This document shows, in pieces, positions 5,772 to 49,693 of a stretch of 64,000 bases of DNA. Position 1 is the stretch's first letter, and every line of letters starts with the position of its first letter. The position numbers and the translations under genes were made by a program. Source of the DNA: Pseudomonas avellanae BPIC 631 (GTDB taxonomy: Bacteria; Pseudomonadota; Gammaproteobacteria; Pseudomonadales; Pseudomonadaceae); assembly GCF_000444135.1 (NCBI RefSeq), contig NZ_ATDK01000046.1, positions 1-64,000 of the forward strand, given 5' to 3'. Below the pieces are notes generated by a model. That model had not been told where the DNA came from. It ran no database searches and was given only the letters and a program-made list of their open reading frames with translations.

Positions 5772-7778
5772 TCAGTCCCGCGCCAGCGCTTCGATAGGGT
5801 CCAGACGGGCGGCATTGCGCGCAGGCACAAAGCCGAACAGCACGCCGATCAGGGTCGAACAGGCGAATGCGGTCACCACCGAGGCCAGTGAAAAGACCAT
5901 CTCCCACTGCTGAACGAACAGGGTAAACAGGTAGCCGATGGCGTAGGACAGGCCGATACCGATCACCCCGCCCATCAGGCAGACTATGACCGCCTCGACC
6001 AGAAACTGCTGGCGAATGTCCGACTGCCGCGCGCCGACGGCCATGCGGATGCCGATTTCGCGAGTGCGCTCGGTCACCGACACCAGCATGATGTTCATCA
6101 CGCCGATCCCGCCCACCACCAGGGAAATCACCGCAATCAGCGACAACAACAGGGTCAGCGAGCGGCTGGTTTTCTGCACGGTCTGCATGACGCTGTCGAG
6201 GTTGTTGGTGAAGAAGTCCTTGGTGCCGTGACGTTGCAGCATCAGTGCCTTGATCTGCTCTTCCACCGCTTTGCTCGGCATGCCGTCCTTGACCCGTACG
6301 CTGATACTGTCCAGATGCCGCTGCCCCAACACCCGCCCCGCCGCCGTTTCATAAGGCATCCACAGGTTGAGCGTGTTGCCCGCGATGAACAGGTTTTTGT
6401 GGTCGCTGGTGACGCCGATCACCGTGCACGGCAGTTTACCGACCAGAATCACTTGCCCCAGCGGGTTGACGCCCGGCCCGAACAGGCGTTGAGCGGTGTT
6501 GTGGTCGAGCACCACCACCTGAGCCTGGCGCCGGGCATCCTGATCACTGAACGTGATGCCGGCTGCCAGCTGGATGTTGCGCACCTGAAAATAGCGACTG
6601 CTGACGCCATTGAGCTGTGCATCCACATCGACGTTGCGATAGCGCACCAGCATGCTGCGACCGACCACGGGCGTGGCGCTGTCGATGTAATACAGCTGAT
6701 TGAGCGCGGCAACGTCTGTGGGGAGTAGCGTTTCGATGGATTTGGCCCGGCTGTCACCAAAGTTGGCACCGGCATAGATGTCGATAGTGTTGCTGCCAAT
6801 CGACTGGATGTCCTTGAGCACGTAGCGCTTGGCGCCTTCGCCGATGGCTGAAATCGAGACCACCGAGGTGATACCGATGATGATGCCGAGCATGGTCAGC
6901 AAGGTGCGCATGCGGTGCGAAATCAGCGCGATCCAGGCCATGTTGAAGGCTTCACGGAACAGCCCCAGGCTGGCTATCAGACGCCGGGGCGCCAAGCCTG
7001 GCTGCTTGGCTGTCTGCGCTTCAGGCACGGGCTGCGTTGCCTGCGTCGTGCGTCGGTCACTGATGATTTCGCCGTCGCTGACTTCGATAATCCGCTCGGC
7101 GTTGGCAGCCACCTTGGGGTCATGCGTCACCAGAATCACGGTGTGGCCTGCGGCATGCAGCTCCAGCAGCGTGCGCATGACTTCCTTGCCGCTGGCGGTG
7201 TCCAGCGCGCCGGTTGGCTCGTCGGCCAGTATCACCTGACCGCCATTCATCAACGCCCTGGCGATACTCACGCGTTGCTGCTGACCGCCGGACATCTGGC
7301 TGGGCCGATGCTGCAAATGTCCGCCCAGCCCCAGGCGCGTGAGCAATGCCTGCGCACGCTCATGGCGTTGGACCTGCGCAGTGCCGGCGTAAATGGCCGG
7401 AATTTCCACATTGCGGACCGCATCCAGGTGCGGCAGCAAATGGTAGCGCTGGAAAATGAAGCCAAAGTGATCGCGGCGCAGCGCTGCCAACGCATCGTCA
7501 TCCAGCTCGCGGGTTTCCTGCCCGTTGACCTGATAGCTGCCGGCACTGGCATGGTCCAGGCAATCGAGAATGTTCATCAGGGTTGATTTGCCCGAGCCGG
7601 AGGCACCGATGATCGCCACCAGTTCGCCGGTGTGAATGGCCAGGTCGATGTCTTTGAGGACCTGAAATTCGCGGTCGCCTGCCATGAAGCTGCGGCTGAC
7701 CTGTTGCAGGTGCAGCAGCGGTTGGTCGCCGTTGATCGACGTTTCGTGGAGCGCTTCGATGTCTACTTTCTGGTTCAT
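5772..7778 (-). CDS. macB: MacB-type ABC exporter of the lipopeptide operon
   Basis: The 668-residue inner-membrane ABC protein has an N-terminal ATPase (Walker A GASGSGKST near residue 55, signature MSGGQQQRVSIARAL, Walker B VILADEPTGALD). A first membrane helix (about 280-305), a large periplasmic core and a FtsX-like block of three C-terminal helices (about 535-655, ending FVPARNAARLDPIEALARD) follow. This is the full MacB arrangement. It lies 2 bp after macA at the end of the syf operon, so its likely job is export of the lipopeptide through MacA and an outer-membrane channel encoded elsewhere. In the syringafactin literature the two transporter genes are called syfC/syfD. The frame is intact. 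Confidence 0.93.
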   Translation of the reverse strand: MNQKVDIEALHETSINGDQPLLHLQQVSRSFMAGDREFQVLKDIDLAIHTGELVAIIGASGSGKSTLMNILDCLDHASAGSYQVNGQETRELDDDALAALRRDHFGFIFQRYHLLPHLDAVRNVEIPAIYAGTAQVQRHERAQALLTRLGLGGHLQHRPSQMSGGQQQRVSIARALMNGGQVILADEPTGALDTASGKEVMRTLLELHAAGHTVILVTHDPKVAANAERIIEVSDGEIISDRRTTQATQPVPEAQTAKQPGLAPRRLIASLGLFREAFNMAWIALISHRMRTLLTMLGIIIGITSVVSISAIGEGAKRYVLKDIQSIGSNTIDIYAGANFGDSRAKSIETLLPTDVAALNQLYYIDSATPVVGRSMLVRYRNVDVDAQLNGVSSRYFQVRNIQLAAGITFSDQDARRQAQVVVLDHNTAQRLFGPGVNPLGQVILVGKLPCTVIGVTSDHKNLFIAGNTLNLWMPYETAAGRVLGQRHLDSISVRVKDGMPSKAVEEQIKALMLQRHGTKDFFTNNLDSVMQTVQKTSRSLTLLLSLIAVISLVVGGIGVMNIMLVSVTERTREIGIRMAVGARQSDIRQQFLVEAVIVCLMGGVIGIGLSYAIGYLFTLFVQQWEMVFSLASVVTAFACSTLIGVLFGFVPARNAARLDPIEALARD

Positions 7779-7780
7779 GC

Positions 7781-8932
7781 TCAGGCCCCCGCCGCAACCG
7801 ACGCCGGATCACCGATCACCACTCTCTCGCCCTCGGCAAGCCCGCCCGTTATTTCGACCTGAACGTTGTTGTTGATGCCGGTCTGCACGTTTCGTTGCTC
7901 GGCGAAACCCTTGTTATCCAGTACCCGTACGGCGTAAGAACCGTCGGTATTACGCGGCCCGAGTGCGGCCACCGGCACACTCAAGGCACCTTTGGCGGTG
8001 CCCAGCACGATGCGCACCTGGGCCGTCATGGCAATGCGCAGGCGATGATCAAGGTTGGGCACTTCAAACAGCGCGTTGTAGAACACCGCCGAGTTCTGCC
8101 GGGAAGAACCCCCGCTGCTCTCGGTTTCCAGATAATCCTGCGGCGCGGGCTCGGTGCCGCGCAGTTTGGCGTAATAGCGCTTTTCTTCGCCGAGAATCGT
8201 GAAATAGACCTCCTGGCCAGCGCCGATGTGAATGACGTCGGCTTCCGATACCTGAGCCTTGATGGTCATGGTGTCCAGATCAGCCAGTTTCAGCAGGATC
8301 GGCGCCAGTTGCTGGGCGATAACGGTCTGGCCTTCCTGAGTCACGACACCGACCACATCGCCGTCGATTGGCGCGATGATTCGCGTGTAGCCCAGGTTGA
8401 CCTTCGCCGTGTCGATCTGCACTTGTGCGCTCTTTATCTGGGCGTCCAGTGCGCGCACGTTGGCCTGCTGCATCTCGTAGTCGGATTCGGCATTTTCAAA
8501 GTCCTGCCGGGATACCGACTGATCGGTCTGTAAATCCTTGTAGCGTTTATAGAGCCGCTCGGCCTGTTTCATCTGAGCTTTTGCCGAATGCCGGTCGGCC
8601 TGCAGCTTTTCCTCGTCCACCTCGGCCTGGCGCAGGGTGTTGCGCAGCACCAGCGGGTCGATCTCGGCCAGCCACTGGCCCTTGGTGACCTTGTCGCCCA
8701 GCTTGACCTTGAGCGACTTCAACTGCCCCGACACCTGAGCGCCGACGTCCACCTGTTTGATGCCCTCCAGCACCCCGGTGGCCAGCACGGCATTTTCGAT
8801 GTCGCTTCGTTCCACCTGAGCGGTGATGTAGACCGGTGCTCTGGCCGGCGCTTCGACGGCGTAAAACACCGCGCAGGCCACCGCCACCAGCGCGCCACCC
8901 CAACCTGCCTTGCGCAATCCGGGCCGTTTCAT
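7781..8932 (-). CDS. macA: MacA-type periplasmic adaptor
   Basis: The 383-residue membrane fusion protein has an N-terminal anchor helix (about residues 8-27), a lipoyl/barrel-sandwich half motif (GVLEGIKQVDVGAQVSGQL), a long alpha-helical hairpin (about 95-165), the second lipoyl half (YTRIIAPIDGDVVGV) and a C-terminal beta-barrel/membrane-proximal domain. The ATG at 8932 is chosen because it overlaps the syfB stop as ATGA (8929-8932), giving translational coupling to the synthetase. Longer starts would run into syfB. It pairs with MacB to form the periplasmic part of the exporter. Intact. Confidence 0.93.
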   Translation of the reverse strand: MKRPGLRKAGWGGALVAVACAVFYAVEAPARAPVYITAQVERSDIENAVLATGVLEGIKQVDVGAQVSGQLKSLKVKLGDKVTKGQWLAEIDPLVLRNTLRQAEVDEEKLQADRHSAKAQMKQAERLYKRYKDLQTDQSVSRQDFENAESDYEMQQANVRALDAQIKSAQVQIDTAKVNLGYTRIIAPIDGDVVGVVTQEGQTVIAQQLAPILLKLADLDTMTIKAQVSEADVIHIGAGQEVYFTILGEEKRYYAKLRGTEPAPQDYLETESSGGSSRQNSAVFYNALFEVPNLDHRLRIAMTAQVRIVLGTAKGALSVPVAALGPRNTDGSYAVRVLDNKGFAEQRNVQTGINNNVQVEITGGLAEGERVVIGDPASVAAGA

Positions 8933-11900
8933 TGGGTTTCCTCCACACCGATCGTCAGCCCGTCGTACCACCATGCCGCCAGGCTGTAGACGTCCGGAGC
9001 CTTGAGCACGCTGAAGTGATTACCTGGCCCCTGCCACAGCGCAAGCTGCGGCAACAACTGCTGCCAACCTGCCGCAGACGAAGCCTGTTCAAGCTGGTTG
9101 TCCAGTGCATCCAGCTGCGGATCATCCACCAGCACCAGACTCGCCCTGCCGTTGTAGCTTCCCGGATCTGGCCGATAGACAGTGCGCACTGCACTGGCAA
9201 ACGTGCGAACGATGCCTTGCAGCGCCTGCGGTGCAAGGCGTTGCGGCAACAGACCGACGCGCACCATGGCGCTCTGGAGCAGATGCAGTTGGGTGTTGCC
9301 ATCGCAATCGGCAAACGCCAGCGGGTCGAGTTCCAGGCTTTTGCCACTGGACAGCTGCAACGCCTCGATCAGCCGCTCCAGCGCTGCCGTTGCGGTGTAA
9401 GGCTTGCTGCTCAAGCCATCACCGCCGGGCGCTTCGCTGTCAATCAGGGTCAGTGACGCGACGTCGCGGCCACGTGCCTGAAGCTTGACCGCCATGGCGT
9501 GTGCCGCCCAGCCGCCAAAGGAGTGCCCGACCAGATGCAATGGCCCTTGCGGGTACATCGCCTCAATCGCCAGCACATGGCTCTGCGCTGCGGCTTCCAC
9601 CCGGCTGTGCGGCACGCTGCGGCCGTCCAGCCCGCGTGGTTGCAGGCCATAGATCGGCCAGTCCGGCCCCAGCGCCTCGGCCAGGCCGATGAAACTGGTG
9701 ACACTGTCACCAGCACCCGGTACGCAGAACAACGGCGCATGCCCATCGCGCCCGCTCTGGATGGCCAGCAGCGACTGATAAGCCGGTGCCGAATGCGCCG
9801 TGGCAGGCGCGTCTTGCAACGCCTGACCAATGCGCTGGCCGAGGGTGTTTATGTGGGGAGCCTGCATCATGCTCATGTGATCGCCCGGCACGCTGACGCA
9901 CTGCAGCGCGCCTTTGGGCAATATCTCTGCCCAACCCAGCGTCGGGCTGGTGCCCGGCGGTGCCGTTGGCCGTTGATCGGCGCAGAACAGGTGAATAGGC
10001 AGGCTGAGCGGCTCCACCTGGTAATGGGCCAATGCATGACCGTGCGCCACTTCGCGCTCCAGATAGTGGCGCAATTGCCGGTCGTCCGCCTGAGCCAGTT
10101 CCTCATACAACAGCTGCTCGTCGCGACACAGTTGCAGCAAGGTGTCGAAGTCTGGCAACGCCGCCTGCTCGCCCAGTGAGTTCAAACGCGCCAGCGCGGT
10201 CGAGCCCGTTTCGTCCTGTGCCTGCCAATGCGCGATGCAGTGCGACAGCAATTGCCGCTCCAGCAGGTCCGGCCCCTGCCAGCGCGCCTTGCCCTGATCG
10301 GTGAGGCGCGGCACATAGCTGTCGATCAGGCCGAGGAACGTAACGGCCTCGTCCATACCGAGCAATTGCGTGGCCACTTCATAAGCCAGCACCCCGCCGA
10401 ATGACCAACCCGCCAGCCGGTAATGGCCGCGTGGCTGGACCTGCCGAATGCGCTCGACCAGCCGCGCTGCCAGGCACTCAAGGGTCCGCAACTGCTGCTG
10501 GCCCAGCCCGATGCCCGGCAGGCCGTAGATCGGAAAATCGCCATTCAGATGCTGCCCGAGCACCGGGAAATACGCATCCAGCCCGGTGAAGTCGTGAATC
10601 AGGAACAACGGTGGCTCGCTGCCGCCCGCCCGCACGGTGATCACTTCCTGGGCGTCGGTGGTGGGCAGCGGACGCTGGTCGAGCAACCCGGCCAGCGCAG
10701 TAATGCTCGGGTGCTGGAACAATTCAGCCAGGGTCAGCGGCAACCCGGCCTTCTGCAGCAGGCTGACCAGACGGATCGCCGACAGCGAATGCCCGCCCAG
10801 CTCAAAGAAGCTGTCGTGTCGGCCGATTCGCCCGACTTCCAGAACCTCGGTCCACAGCTGCGCCAGGCGCTCTTCCAGCACGCTGGACGGCGCTTGATAG
10901 ATGGCCGTCGCCAGCGCGTCCATGTCCGGTGCCGGCAAGGCCTTGCGGTCGACCTTGCCGTTCTGGGTCAACGGCAATGCATCCAGGCCGACATAGGTCG
11001 CAGGCACCATGTATTCCGGCAATCGCCCCAGCAACTGCGCGCGCAATGTGGCGCTGTCTAGAGACGCATCGCGTCGGGTGAAATACGCCACCAGCCGCAA
11101 GGTGCCGTCTTCCAGACGCTGAGTGGTGACGACGGCTTCGGCAACGCCCGGGCATTGGGCAAGCTGCTGCTCAATTTCACCCAGTTCGACGCGCACGCCA
11201 CGGATTTTCACCTGATCATCGTTACGCCCCAGGTACTCAAGCGTGCCGTCAGCCAGCCAGCGCACCAGGTCGCCGGTGCGGTACATCCTGGCGGCCGCCA
11301 CGTTGCTGAACGGATCATCGAGGAAGCGCTCGGCGGTCAGGTCCGGGCGGTTCAGGTAGCCGCGTGCCACGCCGGTGCCGCCGATGTACAACTCGCCCGG
11401 CACGCCAAGCGGCACCGGCTGACTATGCGCGTCCAGCACGTAAAGCCGCGCATGGGCAACCGGTTTGCCGATATGCAGCACCCCTTGCGGCAGCATGAGG
11501 CCGGAACTGGCCACTACCGTGGTTTCCGTCGGTCCGTAATTGTTGACCACCGCAAAGCCCGGATCCTGGTTGAAATGACGCAGGCGGTCGCCGCCGATCA
11601 GCAGGGTGTGCAGGGTCGGGTGGCGCAGCTCGCGGCTGAACGCGTATTCAGCCACCGGCGTGGGCAAAAAAGCTACGTGCAGCGGTTGCGCCAGCCACCA
11701 GTCGAGCAGCAGGTCGAGCTGTTCGTTGCCGATATCGGCAGGCGGCAGGTGCAGCACGGCCCCGGCACACAGTGCAGGCCAGACCTCCCAGGCCATCGCA
11801 TCAAAGCCGAAGCCGGCCACACTGGCTGTGTGGCTGCCAGCGCGCAGATCGAAGGCCTGACAGTGCCAGTCCACCAGATTGTTGAGCGTGCGGTGCTCGA

Positions 11901-43692: not shown

Positions 43693-44807
43693 ATGTCCAC
43701 CGCTACCGAACGCACTGCCGAACAACTTTCCCCCGTCATTCCAGCCACCATGCAGGCGGTAGTGTGCTATGGCCCGGAAGACTACCGGCTGGAAACCGTC
43801 GACGTGCCGACGCCCGGCCCTGACGAAATTCTCACCAAGGTCGAGCTGTGCGGGATCTGCATGGGCGACATCAAGACCTATCGCGGCGCGCCCTCGTTCT
43901 GGGGCGATGCCGAACAGCCGCGCTACGTCAAACCGCCGATGATTCCCGGCCATGAATTCGTCTGCCGGGTGGTTGCGCTTGGTCCGGGCGCGGAAAAGCG
44001 TGGTGTGCAGATTGGCGACCGGGTGATCTCCGAACAGATCGTGCCGTGCTGGGGCTGCCGTTTCTGCAATCACGGCCAGTACTGGATGTGTCAGAAGCAC
44101 GACCTTTACGGCTTCCAGAACAACGTGCAGGGCGCAATGGCCCAGTACATGATCTTCACCAAAGAAGGCATCGTCCACAAAGTACCGGATTCGATTGCCC
44201 CTGACGAAGCGATCCTGATCGAACCGCTGGCCTGCTCGCTGCACGCTGCCGAACGCGCCAACGTCGATTCGATGACATCGTGGTGGTTGCCGGGGCAGGC
44301 ACGCTGGGCCTTGGGATCATCGGTGCTGTGCGGATGCGCAATCCGAAAAAGCTCATCGTGCTCGACATGAAGCCCGAGCGCGCCGCCCTCGCCCTGCGCA
44401 TGGGCGCTGACGAGGTGTGGAACCCCGCCGAGGTCGATGTGCTGGCAAAAATCCGCGAGATCACCGACGGCTACGGCTGCGACATCTATATAGAAGCCAC
44501 CGGGCACCACAAGGCCGTCAATCAGGGCCTGGCGATGCTGCGCAAGCTGGGGCGCTTTGTGGAATTCAGTGTGTTCAACGACGAAGCCACCGTGGACTGG
44601 TCGATTATCGGCGACCGCAAGGAACTGGACGTGCTGGGCTCGCACCTCGGGCCTTACATGTACCCGCGCGCCATCGATTTTATCGGCAACCGCAAGATCG
44701 ACATGCGCGACGTGGTCACCCACACGTTCGCCCTGGCGGATTTCAAGGAAGCCTTCGCCGTCATGGAACGCGGCGACAAATCATTGAAAGTGGTACTGGA
44801 ACCGTAA
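43693..44807 (+). pseudogene. zinc-dependent erythritol/L-threitol dehydrogenase-like gene with a 1-base frameshift
   Basis: Two frames form one medium-chain dehydrogenase of about 371 residues. The first has the catalytic zinc site (VELCGICMGDIKTYRG, IPGHEFVCRV) and structural zinc cysteines (CWGCRFCNHGQYWMC). It is lost at ERANVDS. The second resumes with DDIVVVAGAGTLGLGI and runs to the end, including the cofactor domain. One T missing at 44268-44269 (GATTCGAT where GATTTCGAT keeps the frame) accounts for it. The N-terminal pattern matches, from memory, enzymes named erythritol/L-threitol dehydrogenase. Because the indel is in a short T run, sequencing error is a real alternative. Confidence 0.8.
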
Positions 44808-45852: not shown

Positions 45853-46503
45853 ATGAGCCAGCATTTTTCCACCCATGACGGCACTGCAATCGTCGCGGAC
45901 CTGGTGAGCGTTATCGTCGCCAACCGCGAATACCTCAGCGAGGTCGACGGTGCCATTGGCGACGGCGACCACGGTATCAACATGGCCAAGGGCTTTGCCC
46001 ATTGCGGTCGCTCCATTGAAGGCCGTCAATTGACCCTGGCCGAAGCACTGGACGAACTGACCCTCAGCCTGATGGAAGGCATCGGCGGCTCGATGGGACC
46101 GCTGTACGGCAGCCTGTTTATCGGCATGGCCGATCAGCTACGCGCCAGCGAGCAGATCGATGCGGCGACTTTCGCCAGGCTGCTGCGCGGCGGGCTCACT
46201 TCATTGCAGGACATTACCGAAGCCGGTGTCGGCGACAAATGCCTGATGGACACATTGATTCCGGCAGTCGAAGCCTTCGAGCAGGCACACGCCAATGGCG
46301 CCTCATTCAATGAAGCCCTTGATGCAATGAAAAGCGCCGCAGCACAGGGGCGCGACTCGACCAAGGACCTGATGGCAAAAATCGGCCGCGCCAGCCGTCT
46401 GGGTGAACGCTCGGTGGGTGTGCTGGATGCTGGGGCGGTGTCGTGCTGCCTGATACTGACGCAACTGGCAGATTCAGTGCAGCCCAGGCTCAAAGCCGGT
46501 TGA
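45853..46503 (+). CDS. DhaL-type kinase subunit
   Basis: The 216-residue all-helical nucleotide-binding partner of DhaK. The Mg-nucleotide loop is clear (DGAIGDGDHGINMAKGF), followed by GGSMGPLYGSLF and the C-terminal GRASRLGERSVGVLDAGA. It starts 3 bp after dhaK and ends the polyol operon, converging on the Rieske gene 12 bp away. It supplies ATP/ADP to the DhaK-type subunit. Confidence 0.9.
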   Translation: MSQHFSTHDGTAIVADLVSVIVANREYLSEVDGAIGDGDHGINMAKGFAHCGRSIEGRQLTLAEALDELTLSLMEGIGGSMGPLYGSLFIGMADQLRASEQIDAATFARLLRGGLTSLQDITEAGVGDKCLMDTLIPAVEAFEQAHANGASFNEALDAMKSAAAQGRDSTKDLMAKIGRASRLGERSVGVLDAGAVSCCLILTQLADSVQPRLKAG

Positions 46504-46515
46504 AATACCCGGCTA

Positions 46516-47592
46516 TCAAAGCTCGAATCGAATCCGCCGTTCGCGACGCTGCGCTTCCGGCAGCGCCTCGCCGCGTCGGACCGCCGCCAGCAACTGCTCG
46601 ACGCCCACATGGATGGCGTCGGCAGGCACGTTGCACGGCTTGAAGTTCGCCACGTTATCAAGACCTTCGCGGTGCGCGCGAATGATCTTGACGTCCTGCT
46701 GAATCACAATATGTGTGTACAGATGAATGAACGGGCGCAGCATTCTCAACACCCAGCGGGGCATCGGAAACCGGTAGGCGATGTAGGTGTAGACGCGTGA
46801 CTGGCGAGCATTGACCGGGGTGATCTGGCTGACGATCAAAAAGCCGGAGCGTGCGCCCCACAGGTAGTCACAAAAGGTCACATTCGGCGCCAGAAAGCGA
46901 TCCGTGTGCACCAGCGGTTCGCCGTCCGGGTTGGTCAGCCATTGCATCAGGCCGATCTCGTCCACTTCATCGTGGTAAACCACCTCGATGCTCTGCGCCT
47001 TGCAGGCCAGCGTCGCCTCCATTGCCCGGCCGCTGCTCGAGCGAAAAATCCCTTCGTGGATGAACACCGTGTGCGGCACATCGAGAAAGTTCTGCACCAG
47101 ACTGCCAACATCGGCATCGAAGGTGTTGATCATGAAATAGGATTGCCATGGGCGCTCGCCATAGGCAGGAAGCCGGAAGATCGGGGTGTCGTGAGCATCG
47201 CCCGTGCCGGTGTACACCCAGACCAGCCCATCTTGCTCGCATACCGCAAAATGACGCTGCCGGTAGCGATAACCGGGCGACTTAGGTTCTCCCTGCTCGG
47301 CATCTACGCTGGGGATATGCACTACGTGCCCGTTCGCGTCGTAGCGCCAGCCGTGATAAGGGCACACCAGGCAGTCATCGGTGATTTTACCGGCCTACAG
47401 CCGAGTGCCACGGTGCACGCACTGGTCGAGCAGCGCCGCCGCTGTGCCGCTGCGCTGGCGAAACAGCACGATGTTCAGGCCAAGAATCGTCGCCCGGTAA
47501 GGTTTGTCTTGGCGCAACTGCTTCTGTGTGCACGCCACATACCATTGCTCACGCGTACCGTCTTCAGGTGTTTCGGTCAGAGGTGCGGGCAT
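46516..47592 (-). pseudogene. Rieske 2Fe-2S oxygenase with an internal TAG
   Basis: One frame of about 358 codons is broken by TAG at 47395-47397. Before it: TREQWYVACTQKQLRQDKPY and the first Rieske cluster pair, CVHRGTRL. After it: AGKITDDCLVCPYHGWRY with the second pair, then the mononuclear iron site DVPHTVFIH (Asp, His, His) and a typical C-terminal domain. The stop falls between the two iron-sulfur ligand pairs, so neither piece could hold the cluster. A single base change (for example TCG or CAG to TAG) explains it. The family is Rieske non-heme iron oxygenases; substrate unknown. The start overlaps the end of the GH3-like fragment. Confidence 0.8.
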
Positions 47593-47905
47593 TCGAATTC
47601 TTCCGTGATTGCAAGGAGCGCATTGGCCGTGTCCAGACGACTGATCAGTGCGCGCGGCTTGACGTCACCCGCACGAATGCCGGTTGCCTCCGCTGCGCGT
47701 TGCAGCAGCGCTGCCAGTGTTTGCGCGCCGCCACTGACAAAGCGCACGCGCACTGGCCCCAACTGGCCCAGTGTGCGTGCATGGGCATAGTGAAAGGAGC
47801 CTTGCAGCGCTGTTTCGATGTCGTTTGCCAACACCTGGCAGGGTGTAACCGCTGATGTCGACACAAGGGCCACATACTGCGGCAGTGTGTTTCTGGAGTC
47901 AGGAA
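47577..47905 (-). pseudogene. 3' remnant of a GH3 (acyl-adenylate) family gene
   Basis: An open frame running from the tssC break reads NTLPQYVALVSTSAVTP, then LANDIETALQGSFHYAHART and LGQLGPVRVRFVSGG to a TGA at 47577. The pattern (xLPxYV, then a helix ending in a Y-x-x-x-R segment and LGxLGPxRV) looks like the C-terminal domain of GH3-type amino-acid conjugating enzymes, from memory of that family. The remaining three quarters of the gene are missing. Its stop overlaps the Rieske start (ATGCCCGCACCTCTGA), so the two once formed an operon. The GH3 assignment is moderate only. Confidence 0.5.
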
Positions 47906-48541
47906 TCAGGCAGGCATATGGGCGGCGGCCGCTACTTTGGAGATGTTGCGTAACAGAGCAATATCCTGCGAGCCACGGTCGAATTCATAATTGGAAATAG
48001 CCGCCGCAATCGGCTCGCCACCGGGGGTGTCGTATTCCTGTGTGTAGGTGTGCAGGTATAAACCGCTCTGGGCGATCTCGGGCGCGTCCTCAAAGTCCTG
48101 GGCCAGGTGATCCTTGCTGATGTCCAGCAATTCGATACGCACGTTCTGGCGAAAATCGGTCTGATCGATCAGCGACTTCACACCTCGCCAGGTTGACTCG
48201 ACACGTTGAAAATCAGGGTGGTGCATGACCGCGTCAAGTTGACGGCTGATCTGTGCATCCAGGGAAGCGATGTGCTCGTCCAGCAAGGTCTTGTCCAGGC
48301 GTTCGACTTTATGCGACGACTGTTTGAGCAGGTTCAGAAAAACACTGACGGCCGCAGTGACCCGCTCATCGGCAGAAGCTTCGGACAAGGCCTCGGAGTT
48401 CTGAAACGCTTCGATGCCATTCAACCGGGCTATCGGGCTGAGATTGATCTTGGCAAACAAGGCGCCATAGATCCCTTGGCCGCCGTCTGCGTCGAGGGTC
48501 TTGGTCAACTGCGAGGCTGGTGAAGATTGTTCTGCGGGCAT
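47906..48541 (-). pseudogene. tssC: tssC (type VI sheath large subunit), truncated after the N-terminal half
   Basis: The product starts at 48541 (MPAEQSSPASQ) and has the TssC/VipB N-terminal half: DAQISRQLDAVMHHPDFQRV, ESTWRGVKSLIDQTDF, ISNYEFDRGSQDIALLR, ending NISKVAAAAHMPA-stop after 211 residues. TssC is normally near 490 residues; the sequence breaks right where SKVAAAAHMPF would continue. What follows is the tail of an unrelated gene, so the end is a deletion junction near 47905-47917. Without the C-terminal domain a sheath cannot form. Confidence 0.88.
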
Positions 48542-48575
48542 GATGAAAATTTCCTTATTAACGAACCAAGGGCAA

Positions 48576-49079
48576 TCAACGATCTTCTTGTGGCGCCAGC
48601 GCAGCCAGTTCGGCTCGCAATTCGTCACTCAGCGCGTCGTCCTTGAGGATGCGTTCCAGCTCATGGCGAAAAGTAGCGTTATCCAACAGGTTGGATTTAA
48701 GGTCGCGCAGCAGGTTGCGCATCGCCAGCAGGGCTCGCAATTGCGGAATTTGCCGCGCCACCTGTTCAGGCTCAAAGTCTTTCATGCCCTGAAAACTCAA
48801 CGCGACAGCCGTGTCGGCGTTGCCGTCGATCAAGGTATTTTCTATTGCCAGTTTCAGGCTCGGCGAGAACTCGGCCAGCACACTGTCGAAGTTGTTCTTG
48901 TTAATGTCGACCTTGCTTCTTTCAGATAACGGGCGCTGTTCCTTGCCGTTGCTGTAATCCCCCATCAGCATTAATTTGAGTGGGAGTTCGACCTTCTTTT
49001 GAGCGCCGCCCGTGTGCAAGTCAAGCTTGATGTTGACCCGAGCTTTGGGCACTTCGTTTTGAAAACTGTTCGATGCCAT
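48576..49079 (-). CDS. tssB: TssB, type VI secretion sheath small subunit
   Basis: The 167-residue protein shows the TssB/VipA pattern: NEVPKARVNIKLDLHTGG, KVELPLKLMLMGDYSNG, LSERSKVDINKNNFDSVLAE, MKDFEPEQVARQIPQL. The ATG at 49079 (MASNSFQN) fits the family start better than 49094. It leads the broken tssC by 34 bp. TssB and TssC form the contractile sheath, but no other type VI gene is present in the window and tssC is cut. The gene is an intact orphan, probably non-functional here. Confidence 0.9.
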   Translation of the reverse strand: MASNSFQNEVPKARVNIKLDLHTGGAQKKVELPLKLMLMGDYSNGKEQRPLSERSKVDINKNNFDSVLAEFSPSLKLAIENTLIDGNADTAVALSFQGMKDFEPEQVARQIPQLRALLAMRNLLRDLKSNLLDNATFRHELERILKDDALSDELRAELAALAPQEDR

Positions 49080-49693
49080 ACATCCTCCAGACACAACTCT
49101 GCGAGACAGAAAAATCCGCCAGCCAACCCGATAAGCAATTCAAGAGACGCCTTGCGCAACAGGCTTCAGGCGACCCGCAGACCCAGGCGCATACAAGCGA
49201 CAGAAATCCACGCAATATTTTTTATTCGTTGCCGGCACATTTAAACAGCCAGCTATAAACAATGCGTTGAAACAATTAGCCGCAAAAATGAGGTGACACA
49301 TATTTATCACGAATTATTTCAAAAGCAAGCATTGCCATGACGAAATCTTTAATTTTTTGAACTGGGTCTACGACAACTCAGAAGTCGACTTTTATTAAAG
49401 AAAAGTCCTACGCGCTTTCGGAAAAGGCCTACATATAAGCCCAACTTATTCTGTTACGAGTCGATAAACACGGCCATCATGTTTGGGGGAGTTTTAAAGA
49501 AGACTTTCAAACTTGGCAGACTATCTGATCTGAACCGGGGAGACGCCTGATGAAGCGGATGACCATTCGCCAAATGGCTATGGGAGGGGGTCATTCAAAG
49601 AATGAATCGATGAGTTAACGGTGAGAGAAGTCTGATTACCTGACCGGGAACAGCGGAATGTACCGTGCCACATTCCACCGTTCAGCAACGGGC
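49080..49693. other. AT-rich intergenic region upstream of tssB
   Basis: About 610 bp without a credible gene, AT-rich between 49200 and 49500. It presumably held the promoter of the former type VI operon (minus strand) and the 3' region of the monooxygenase operon. A short near-palindrome (GGAATGT/ACATTCC at 49656-49677) is present but has no T tract. I see no tRNA or long repeat. Confidence 0.4.

What the first reader, a model, noticed from the sequence alone, without database searches (positions are those of the whole stretch)
47900..47920. Deletion junction joining half of tssC to the tail of a GH3-like gene
tssC ends exactly where the conserved SKVAAAAHMP segment should continue, and within a few bases an unrelated frame (NTLPQYVALV) begins. 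A type VI secretion cluster and most of a possible hormone-conjugating gene were lost in one event, leaving tssB as an orphan.
Basis: partly seen in the sequence, partly recalled or inferred. Interest (0 to 1): 0.6.

Follow-up and report, generated by a model that had tools for sequence, protein, structure and literature searches.

The report
Scar of a lost secretion cluster
In a draft Pseudomonas genome, the front end of a type VI secretion (bacterial weapon) gene cluster is joined base-to-base to the back end of an unrelated enzyme gene; it looks like a real and recent, but ordinary, scar of gene loss.

Summary
Confirmed: at window 47913-47915 (minus strand) tssC, after codon 210 of about 512, is joined to the last 112 codons of a GH3-family gene. 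The halves overlap by 3 nt (GCC), with no filler. The tssC edge is the same, to one base, against 32 of 32 genomes lined up; the GH3 edge is 47915-47916 against the four closest GH3 relatives. DNA probes of relatives find neither missing half elsewhere in the assembly, and TssK and TssM are absent, so a misjoin is unlikely and the secretion machine is gone. GH3, Rieske and DhaL keep their ancestral order: P. viridiflava, P. congelans and P. graminis have the GH3 cluster between the same two flank genes. The T6SS piece is the newcomer. A gutted IS remnant lies between its leader and the CMD flank, none at the join. All pieces keep low dN/dS, so the event is recent. Not shown: that a complete T6SS cluster stood here and left in one deletion. 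No relative with T6SS beside this GH3 cluster was found (0 of 20 genomes examined), and two other genomes carry short tssB/tssC remnants. 'Hormone-conjugating' is unsupported; the neighbours suggest an acyl-amide or lipid pathway. Ordinary gene-loss scar; low interest.

The parts
48576..49079 (-). tssB (T6SS sheath small subunit), 167 aa, intact, orphan
   Evidence: Pfam T6SS_VipA E 1.2e-53; NCBIfam TIGR03358 over cut-off
47906..48541 (-). tssC' : first 210 codons of tssC, one foreign codon, then TGA at 47906-47908
   Evidence: Pfam VipB E 3e-49, profile 1-123 of 301; TIGR03355 profile 9-173 of 473, below its cut-off
47913..47915 (-). junction: GCC shared by tssC and GH3, no filler
   Evidence: tssC side ends at 47913 or 47912 in 32 of 32 genomes lined up; GH3 side starts at 47915 or 47916 in the 4 closest relatives
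47577..47915 (-). 3' tail of a GH3-family gene (112 codons plus stop; the P. folii frame has 535 codons)
   Evidence: Pfam GH3_C E 6.7e-6; 56-60% protein identity to 8 GH3 proteins; 90% to P. folii
46516..47592 (-). Rieske / VanA-type oxygenase gene broken by an in-frame TAG at 47395-47397
   Evidence: ORFs; Pfam Rieske on both parts, VanA_C on one; one open frame in P. folii, ICMP 561, congelans and viridiflava
49118..49479 (-). region upstream of tssB, taken to be the T6SS leader / promoter; 49239-49473 is 77% identical to the end of contig C51 of the same genome
   Evidence: the function is inferred
49480..49571 (.). 5' end of an insertion-sequence remnant (IS5 family by recall)
   Evidence: 79% over 92 nt to a fuller copy at G066:C34; also matches upstream of a transposase-like frame in G056 C310
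49604..49646 (.). internal 3' part of the same remnant; about 1 kb of core and about 65 nt of the 3' end are missing
   Evidence: 84% over 43 nt to the 3' part of the same copy at G066:C34
49694..50284 (-). flank gene, carboxymuconolactone decarboxylase family (CMD)
   Evidence: Pfam CMD E 3e-16; present beside or 26-32 kb from the GH3 cluster in P. viridiflava, congelans, graminis
45853..46503 (+). other flank gene, DhaL-like (Dak2 domain)
   Evidence: Pfam Dak2 E 2.6e-51; next to Rieske-GH3 in P. viridiflava, graminis, congelans

Best explanation
A recent illegitimate-recombination deletion. A T6SS operon (promoter, tssB, tssC, rest of cluster) stood next to the CMD gene, upstream of and on the same strand as the resident GH3-Rieske cluster. 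A break inside tssC and a break inside GH3 were joined with only 3 nt in common, removing the rest of the T6SS operon (about 20 kb or more, by comparison with the cluster in G086), about the first 420 codons of GH3 and everything between. What remains is leader-tssB-tssC'::GH3'-Rieske, leftovers without a machine. Shown: the junction, the absence of both missing halves, no TssK or TssM, the native position of GH3-Rieske-DhaL, an IS remnant at the T6SS/CMD edge, low dN/dS. Inferred: that the lost T6SS was complete and in place, that one deletion did it, and that the IS had a part in bringing the T6SS next to CMD.
For: Sharp edges on both sides with a 3-nt overlap. Same strand and order as a deletion needs. 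No other T6SS DNA than the fragment, weak ClpV-part hits aside; no GH3-cluster DNA other than 46511-47915; no TssK, TssM or second TssC. P. viridiflava keeps CMD - GH3 cluster - Rieske - DhaL; P. congelans and P. graminis keep both flanks on one contig, CMD 26 and 32 kb from GH3, with no T6SS in the interval, all of which was fetched. dN/dS of tssB and tssC' against G038 and G086 is 0.034-0.054, and of Rieske against five relatives 0.025-0.078, about as low as between other genomes' copies: too recent for marked decay. A broken tssB copy in G086 gives 0.709 in the same test, so decay is detectable.
Against: No genome was found with T6SS beside this GH3 cluster (29 stretches, 20 genomes) or beside CMD, so the pre-deletion state is not seen; one search scored only one or two candidates per genome and is known to have missed a true match (the CMD side of G295), so it is no full survey. 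A 3-nt overlap has about a 5% chance at a random join, so it says little about mechanism. Short T6SS 5' remnants exist elsewhere (G038 C49, G086 C30), so the piece here may have been short before the join. For tssC' dN from the window to G038 or G086 is 0.030, against 0.013 between those two, which may hint at slight relaxation or just a deeper split.
Confidence: 0.65

Rival explanations
1. Two-step history: the T6SS was already reduced to a short leader-tssB-tssC' remnant, possibly moved next to CMD with the IS element, and a later, smaller deletion joined its ragged end to GH3.
For: Comparable 5' remnants exist in other genomes: G038 C49 has tssB plus 86 codons of tssC, then an unrelated frame; G086 C30 has leader plus a broken tssB followed by a vgrG start, 95.7% and 97.0% identical to its own main cluster. 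An IS remnant borders the piece. No complete T6SS was seen at this site in any relative.
Against: Needs more steps; tssC' shows little or no decay up to its last codon.
Confidence: 0.22
2. Breakpoint of a larger rearrangement (inversion or translocation) that brought tssC next to GH3, followed by loss of the other products.
For: In G100 and G182 the T6SS lies about 50 and 160 kb from CMD, on the other side of it from where the window has it.
Against: The flanks CMD and DhaL keep their relative order and strands as in P. viridiflava, and neither partner product is found in the genome.
Confidence: 0.1
3. Assembly misjoin in a 610-contig draft.
For: Fragmented draft.
Against: A 3-nt overlap is too short for an assembler, and the missing halves of both genes were not found on other contigs, whereas a misjoin would leave them there.
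Confidence: 0.03

Closest known systems
Loss of T6SS core clusters in plant-associated bacteria, e.g. Ralstonia T6SS-null lineages (PMC11481896, passages read)
   Same: Core cluster gone, two of its genes left in one lineage, decayed auxiliary clusters in another
   Different: Here the base-level join into a neighbouring biosynthetic gene is visible and the leftovers are nearly undecayed
T6SS sheath genes tssB and tssC of Pseudomonas (HSI clusters of P. syringae; PMC7283901 seen in the search listing only)
   Same: tssB and tssC' match the general family models TIGR03358 and TIGR03355
   Different: tssC truncated, no other cluster genes; which HSI type it was is not tested
OlsH, GH3-like lyso-ornithine lipid synthetase (PMC12493201, passages read)
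   Same: Bacterial GH3-family enzyme; the P. folii GH3 protein matches its NCBIfam model over residues 24-124 (E 3.7e-12)
   Different: 45.5 bits against a cut-off of 620: not shown to be OlsH; neighbours include desaturases and a Rieske oxygenase

Membership tests
T6SS sheath genes tssB/tssC | TssB and TssC family profiles | tested here: met
   TIGR03358 172.3 bits over cut-off 97.25; TIGR03355 198.6 bits, below its cut-off of 271.5, with profile 9-173 of 473 present
Functional T6SS | TssK, TssM and full-length TssC in the genome | tested here: not met
   No PF05936, no PF06744, only a partial TssC
Deletion scar | Two sharp homology edges meeting with no or minimal filler, same strand | tested here: met
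Deletion scar | Missing halves absent from the genome | tested here: met
   DNA probes from relatives, (draft assembly)
Deletion scar | A relative with the undeleted arrangement (T6SS next to GH3 cluster) | tested here: not met
   0 of 29 GH3-cluster or flank stretches (20 genomes, 14 of them Pseudomonas) hold any of eight T6SS proteins; 3 of 3 control loci do. Sample limited, so the ancestor may exist unsampled
IS-mediated deletion | An IS end exactly at the join | tested here: not met
   The IS remnant lies at 49480-49646, about 1.6 kb away
GH3 hormone-conjugating enzyme | Full GH3 enzyme with hormone substrate | not testable with these tools
   Only the C-terminal tail is present; relatives' cluster content points to lipids or acyl amides

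The most novel reading that the evidence does not exclude
The front of the T6SS operon (leader plus tssB, with a tssC stub) is repeatedly kept when the rest of the cluster is lost, because the leader or TssB itself has a T6SS-independent use, for instance as a promoter now driving the genes behind it (in G086 a vgrG, here GH3' and Rieske). Against it: the G086 tssB copy is broken and decaying.
Probability: 0.05. Interest if true: 0.5.

Novelty: new member of a known kind. Interest (0 to 1): 0.2.

Why it matters
It documents, to the base, a recent loss of a secretion machine together with most of a neighbouring biosynthesis cluster in a Pseudomonas related to plant-associated species, with the leftovers nearly undecayed, so it could help to date the loss. 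As a biological kind (deletion scar, orphan tssB) it is ordinary.

Tried and rejected
Hormone-conjugating reading of GH3: not supported by cluster content. IS at the junction: none found; the IS remnant lies at the other edge. Plasmid-borne T6SS piece: 76 plasmid records match, none over 80% of the query, and the ten listed all start at query base 314 (window 47913, the junction), so none of those ten shows the join (66 further records not seen). PADLOC on TssB: nothing. Idea that the frame after the tssC' break in G038 C49 is the tail of a VgrG: no good match by tblastn among the VgrGs at hand. Leader copy on contig C51: ends at the contig edge, so what it leads to could not be seen. Short repeats around the join do not sit at both break points. 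TssB (PF05591) was not searched across the own genome as a family, only as part of the DNA probe. A T6SS review (PMC5813230, passages) gave nothing used here.

Full report
What is there. On the minus strand the order is CMD gene, IS remnant, T6SS leader, tssB (167 aa), tssC' (210 codons), join, GH3 tail (112 codons), Rieske gene with an in-frame TAG, and then, on the plus strand, the DhaL-like gene. The join is at 47913-47915. Against 32 of 32 genomes whose tssC was lined up, homology stops at base 629 (28 genomes) or 630 (4 genomes) of the window's tssC', that is at 47913 or 47912; the relatives' frame stays open for at least 133 more codons in 31 of them, while G020 has a stop after 49. Rows L051, L053 and L061 repeat genomes already counted, and L050, itself a truncated copy ending at base 259, was left out of the 32. 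The 32 are those with a fetched locus; one search lists further matches, several of which are weaker or start further inside (for example G264 at query base 770). Against the four closest GH3 relatives (P. folii, P. sp. ICMP 561, P. congelans, P. graminis) homology stops at 47915 or 47916; against seven more distant ones the DNA match ends earlier, at 47797-47819, but the protein alignment reaches the join: its first three residues, ACL, are invariant in 9 of 9 rows, the window's included. The overlap is GCC; there is no filler. A random join has an overlap of 3 nt or more in about 5% of cases, so the overlap fits microhomology but does not prove it.

Is the join real? The genome is a 610-contig draft. 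A misjoin would leave the other halves on other contigs. An 11.6 kb probe of the T6SS cluster from G086 hits 47913-49117 and otherwise gives only five weak matches (67-78%) on three other contigs within the ClpV part of the probe, which I take to be other Clp-type ATPase genes. A 9 kb probe of the P. folii GH3 cluster hits only 46511-47915. VipB, TssK and TssM family searches give one partial hit, none and none; in each of them E. coli was the one of 14 control genomes that rang. So the loss is real as far as the assembly is complete (listed as 100%). Hcp and VgrG-type matches remain elsewhere in the genome: three Hcp (one uninterrupted, beside phage-like genes; one with a stop inside; one of 37 positions with a stop inside, near a contig end) and four VgrG-type, one of them in the same phage-like set.

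Where things stood before. In P. viridiflava the GH3 cluster lies between CMD and DhaL, in two records: ICMP 19473 (L101, the same contig as G295 / L070) and ICMP 2848 (L099). In P. congelans and P. graminis both flanks are on one contig, CMD about 26 and 32 kb from GH3; the whole interval was fetched and holds other genes and no T6SS. In G094 and G192 the flanks are 1.3 kb apart with no match to GH3 or T6SS between. G056 has its own cut at this place: its Rieske gene stops matching at 47042, followed by about 0.4 kb that I read by eye as a fragment of the phosphoesterase gene seen beside CMD in other species, then window 59273 onward. P. folii and ICMP 561 have the cluster too, but not beside DhaL. 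So the GH3, Rieske and DhaL part is most simply in its native place and the T6SS piece is the newcomer; the site is variable between species.

The T6SS side. The closest tssBC relatives (G038, G086) are 86% identical over 1.2 kb. Among the matches listed for the 298 sampled genomes none joins T6SS to GH3 or to the CMD or DhaL flanks. These searches score only one or two candidates per genome and are not a full survey; one search missed the CMD flank of G295 that one search found. In G100 and G182, which hold both, T6SS and CMD are about 50 and 160 kb apart; in G050 and P. folii (G319) they are on different contigs. Eight T6SS proteins (labels of TssF and TssM by eye) searched against 29 GH3-cluster or flank stretches gave no hit; the same search found T6SS proteins in 3 of 3 control loci. 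The 29 stretches come from 20 genomes, since several repeat one contig or its neighbour; six of the 20 are not Pseudomonas. The undeleted ancestor is therefore not observed.

IS. Between leader and CMD, 49480-49571 and 49604-49646 match the two end regions of one element at G066:C34 that has a transposase-like frame between them. The first part also matches upstream of a transposase-like frame in G056 C310 and at G056 C245, where I saw no such frame; the second matches just beside a transposase-like frame in the own genome (C260). About 1 kb of core and about 65 nt of one end are missing here. The name IS5 family is recalled, not a database result. The IS may have helped to place the T6SS beside CMD; it is not at the tssC::GH3 join.

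Age. Pairwise dN/dS (Nei-Gojobori): window tssB against G038 and G086 0.054 and 0.050 (0.059 between those two); tssC' 0.040 and 0.034 (0.021 between those two, and dN 0.030 against 0.013, a possible slight excess on the window side); GH3 tail 0.146-0.206, as among the five relatives (0.116-0.238); Rieske 0.025-0.078 despite its stop. The broken tssB copy in G086 gives 0.709 against its main-cluster copy, so the test can see decay. The leftovers are recent.

What the GH3 gene was. The P. folii cluster holds two FA_desaturase proteins, a Metal_hydrol protein, GH3 (N-terminal, central and C-terminal domains) and a Rieske/VanA_C oxygenase; three further proteins match no Pfam family; I read two of these as GNAT-like and one as a hydrolase by eye. 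The GH3 protein matches only OlsH in NCBIfam, far below its cut-off. PMC12493201 (passages read) shows a bacterial GH3-like enzyme that makes lyso-ornithine lipid and suggests other N-acyl amino acids for homologues. A lipid or acyl-amide product is more likely than hormone conjugation; the product is unknown.

Precedent. Loss of T6SS core clusters with leftovers is known (PMC11481896, passages read). I made three paper searches and saw no description of this junction in the listings; that is not proof of absence in print.

Verdict. Observation confirmed; interpretation right about the join and the orphan tssB, unproven about a single event, unsupported about a hormone. Ordinary gene-loss scar.

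Noticed in passing
window 47395-47397: In-frame TAG breaks the Rieske oxygenase gene that relatives keep open; the rest shows no clear decay.
   Followed up: partly
G000:C51:20-254 (L049): A second, 77% identical copy of the tssB leader at a contig end next to what look like cyanate-lyase and LysR genes (by eye); what it leads to is off the contig.
   Followed up: partly
window 43693-44807: The alcohol dehydrogenase that is one 371-aa frame in relatives is split into two overlapping frames (225 and 175 aa): frameshift or sequencing error.
   Followed up: no
G038:C49 (L050) 6242-9660; G086:C30 (L052) 1-1811: Other T6SS 5' remnants: tssB plus 86 codons of tssC before an unrelated frame and an 806-aa frame without NCBIfam match; leader plus broken tssB before a vgrG start.
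   Followed up: partly
G056:C383 (L072, L140): Separate cut at the same locus: Rieske homology ends at window 47042 and the sequence resumes at window 59273 after about 0.4 kb.
   Followed up: partly
window 8929-36216: Large minus-strand non-ribosomal peptide synthetase genes; three of the four long frames were scanned, one carries Thioesterase-domain matches.
   Followed up: no
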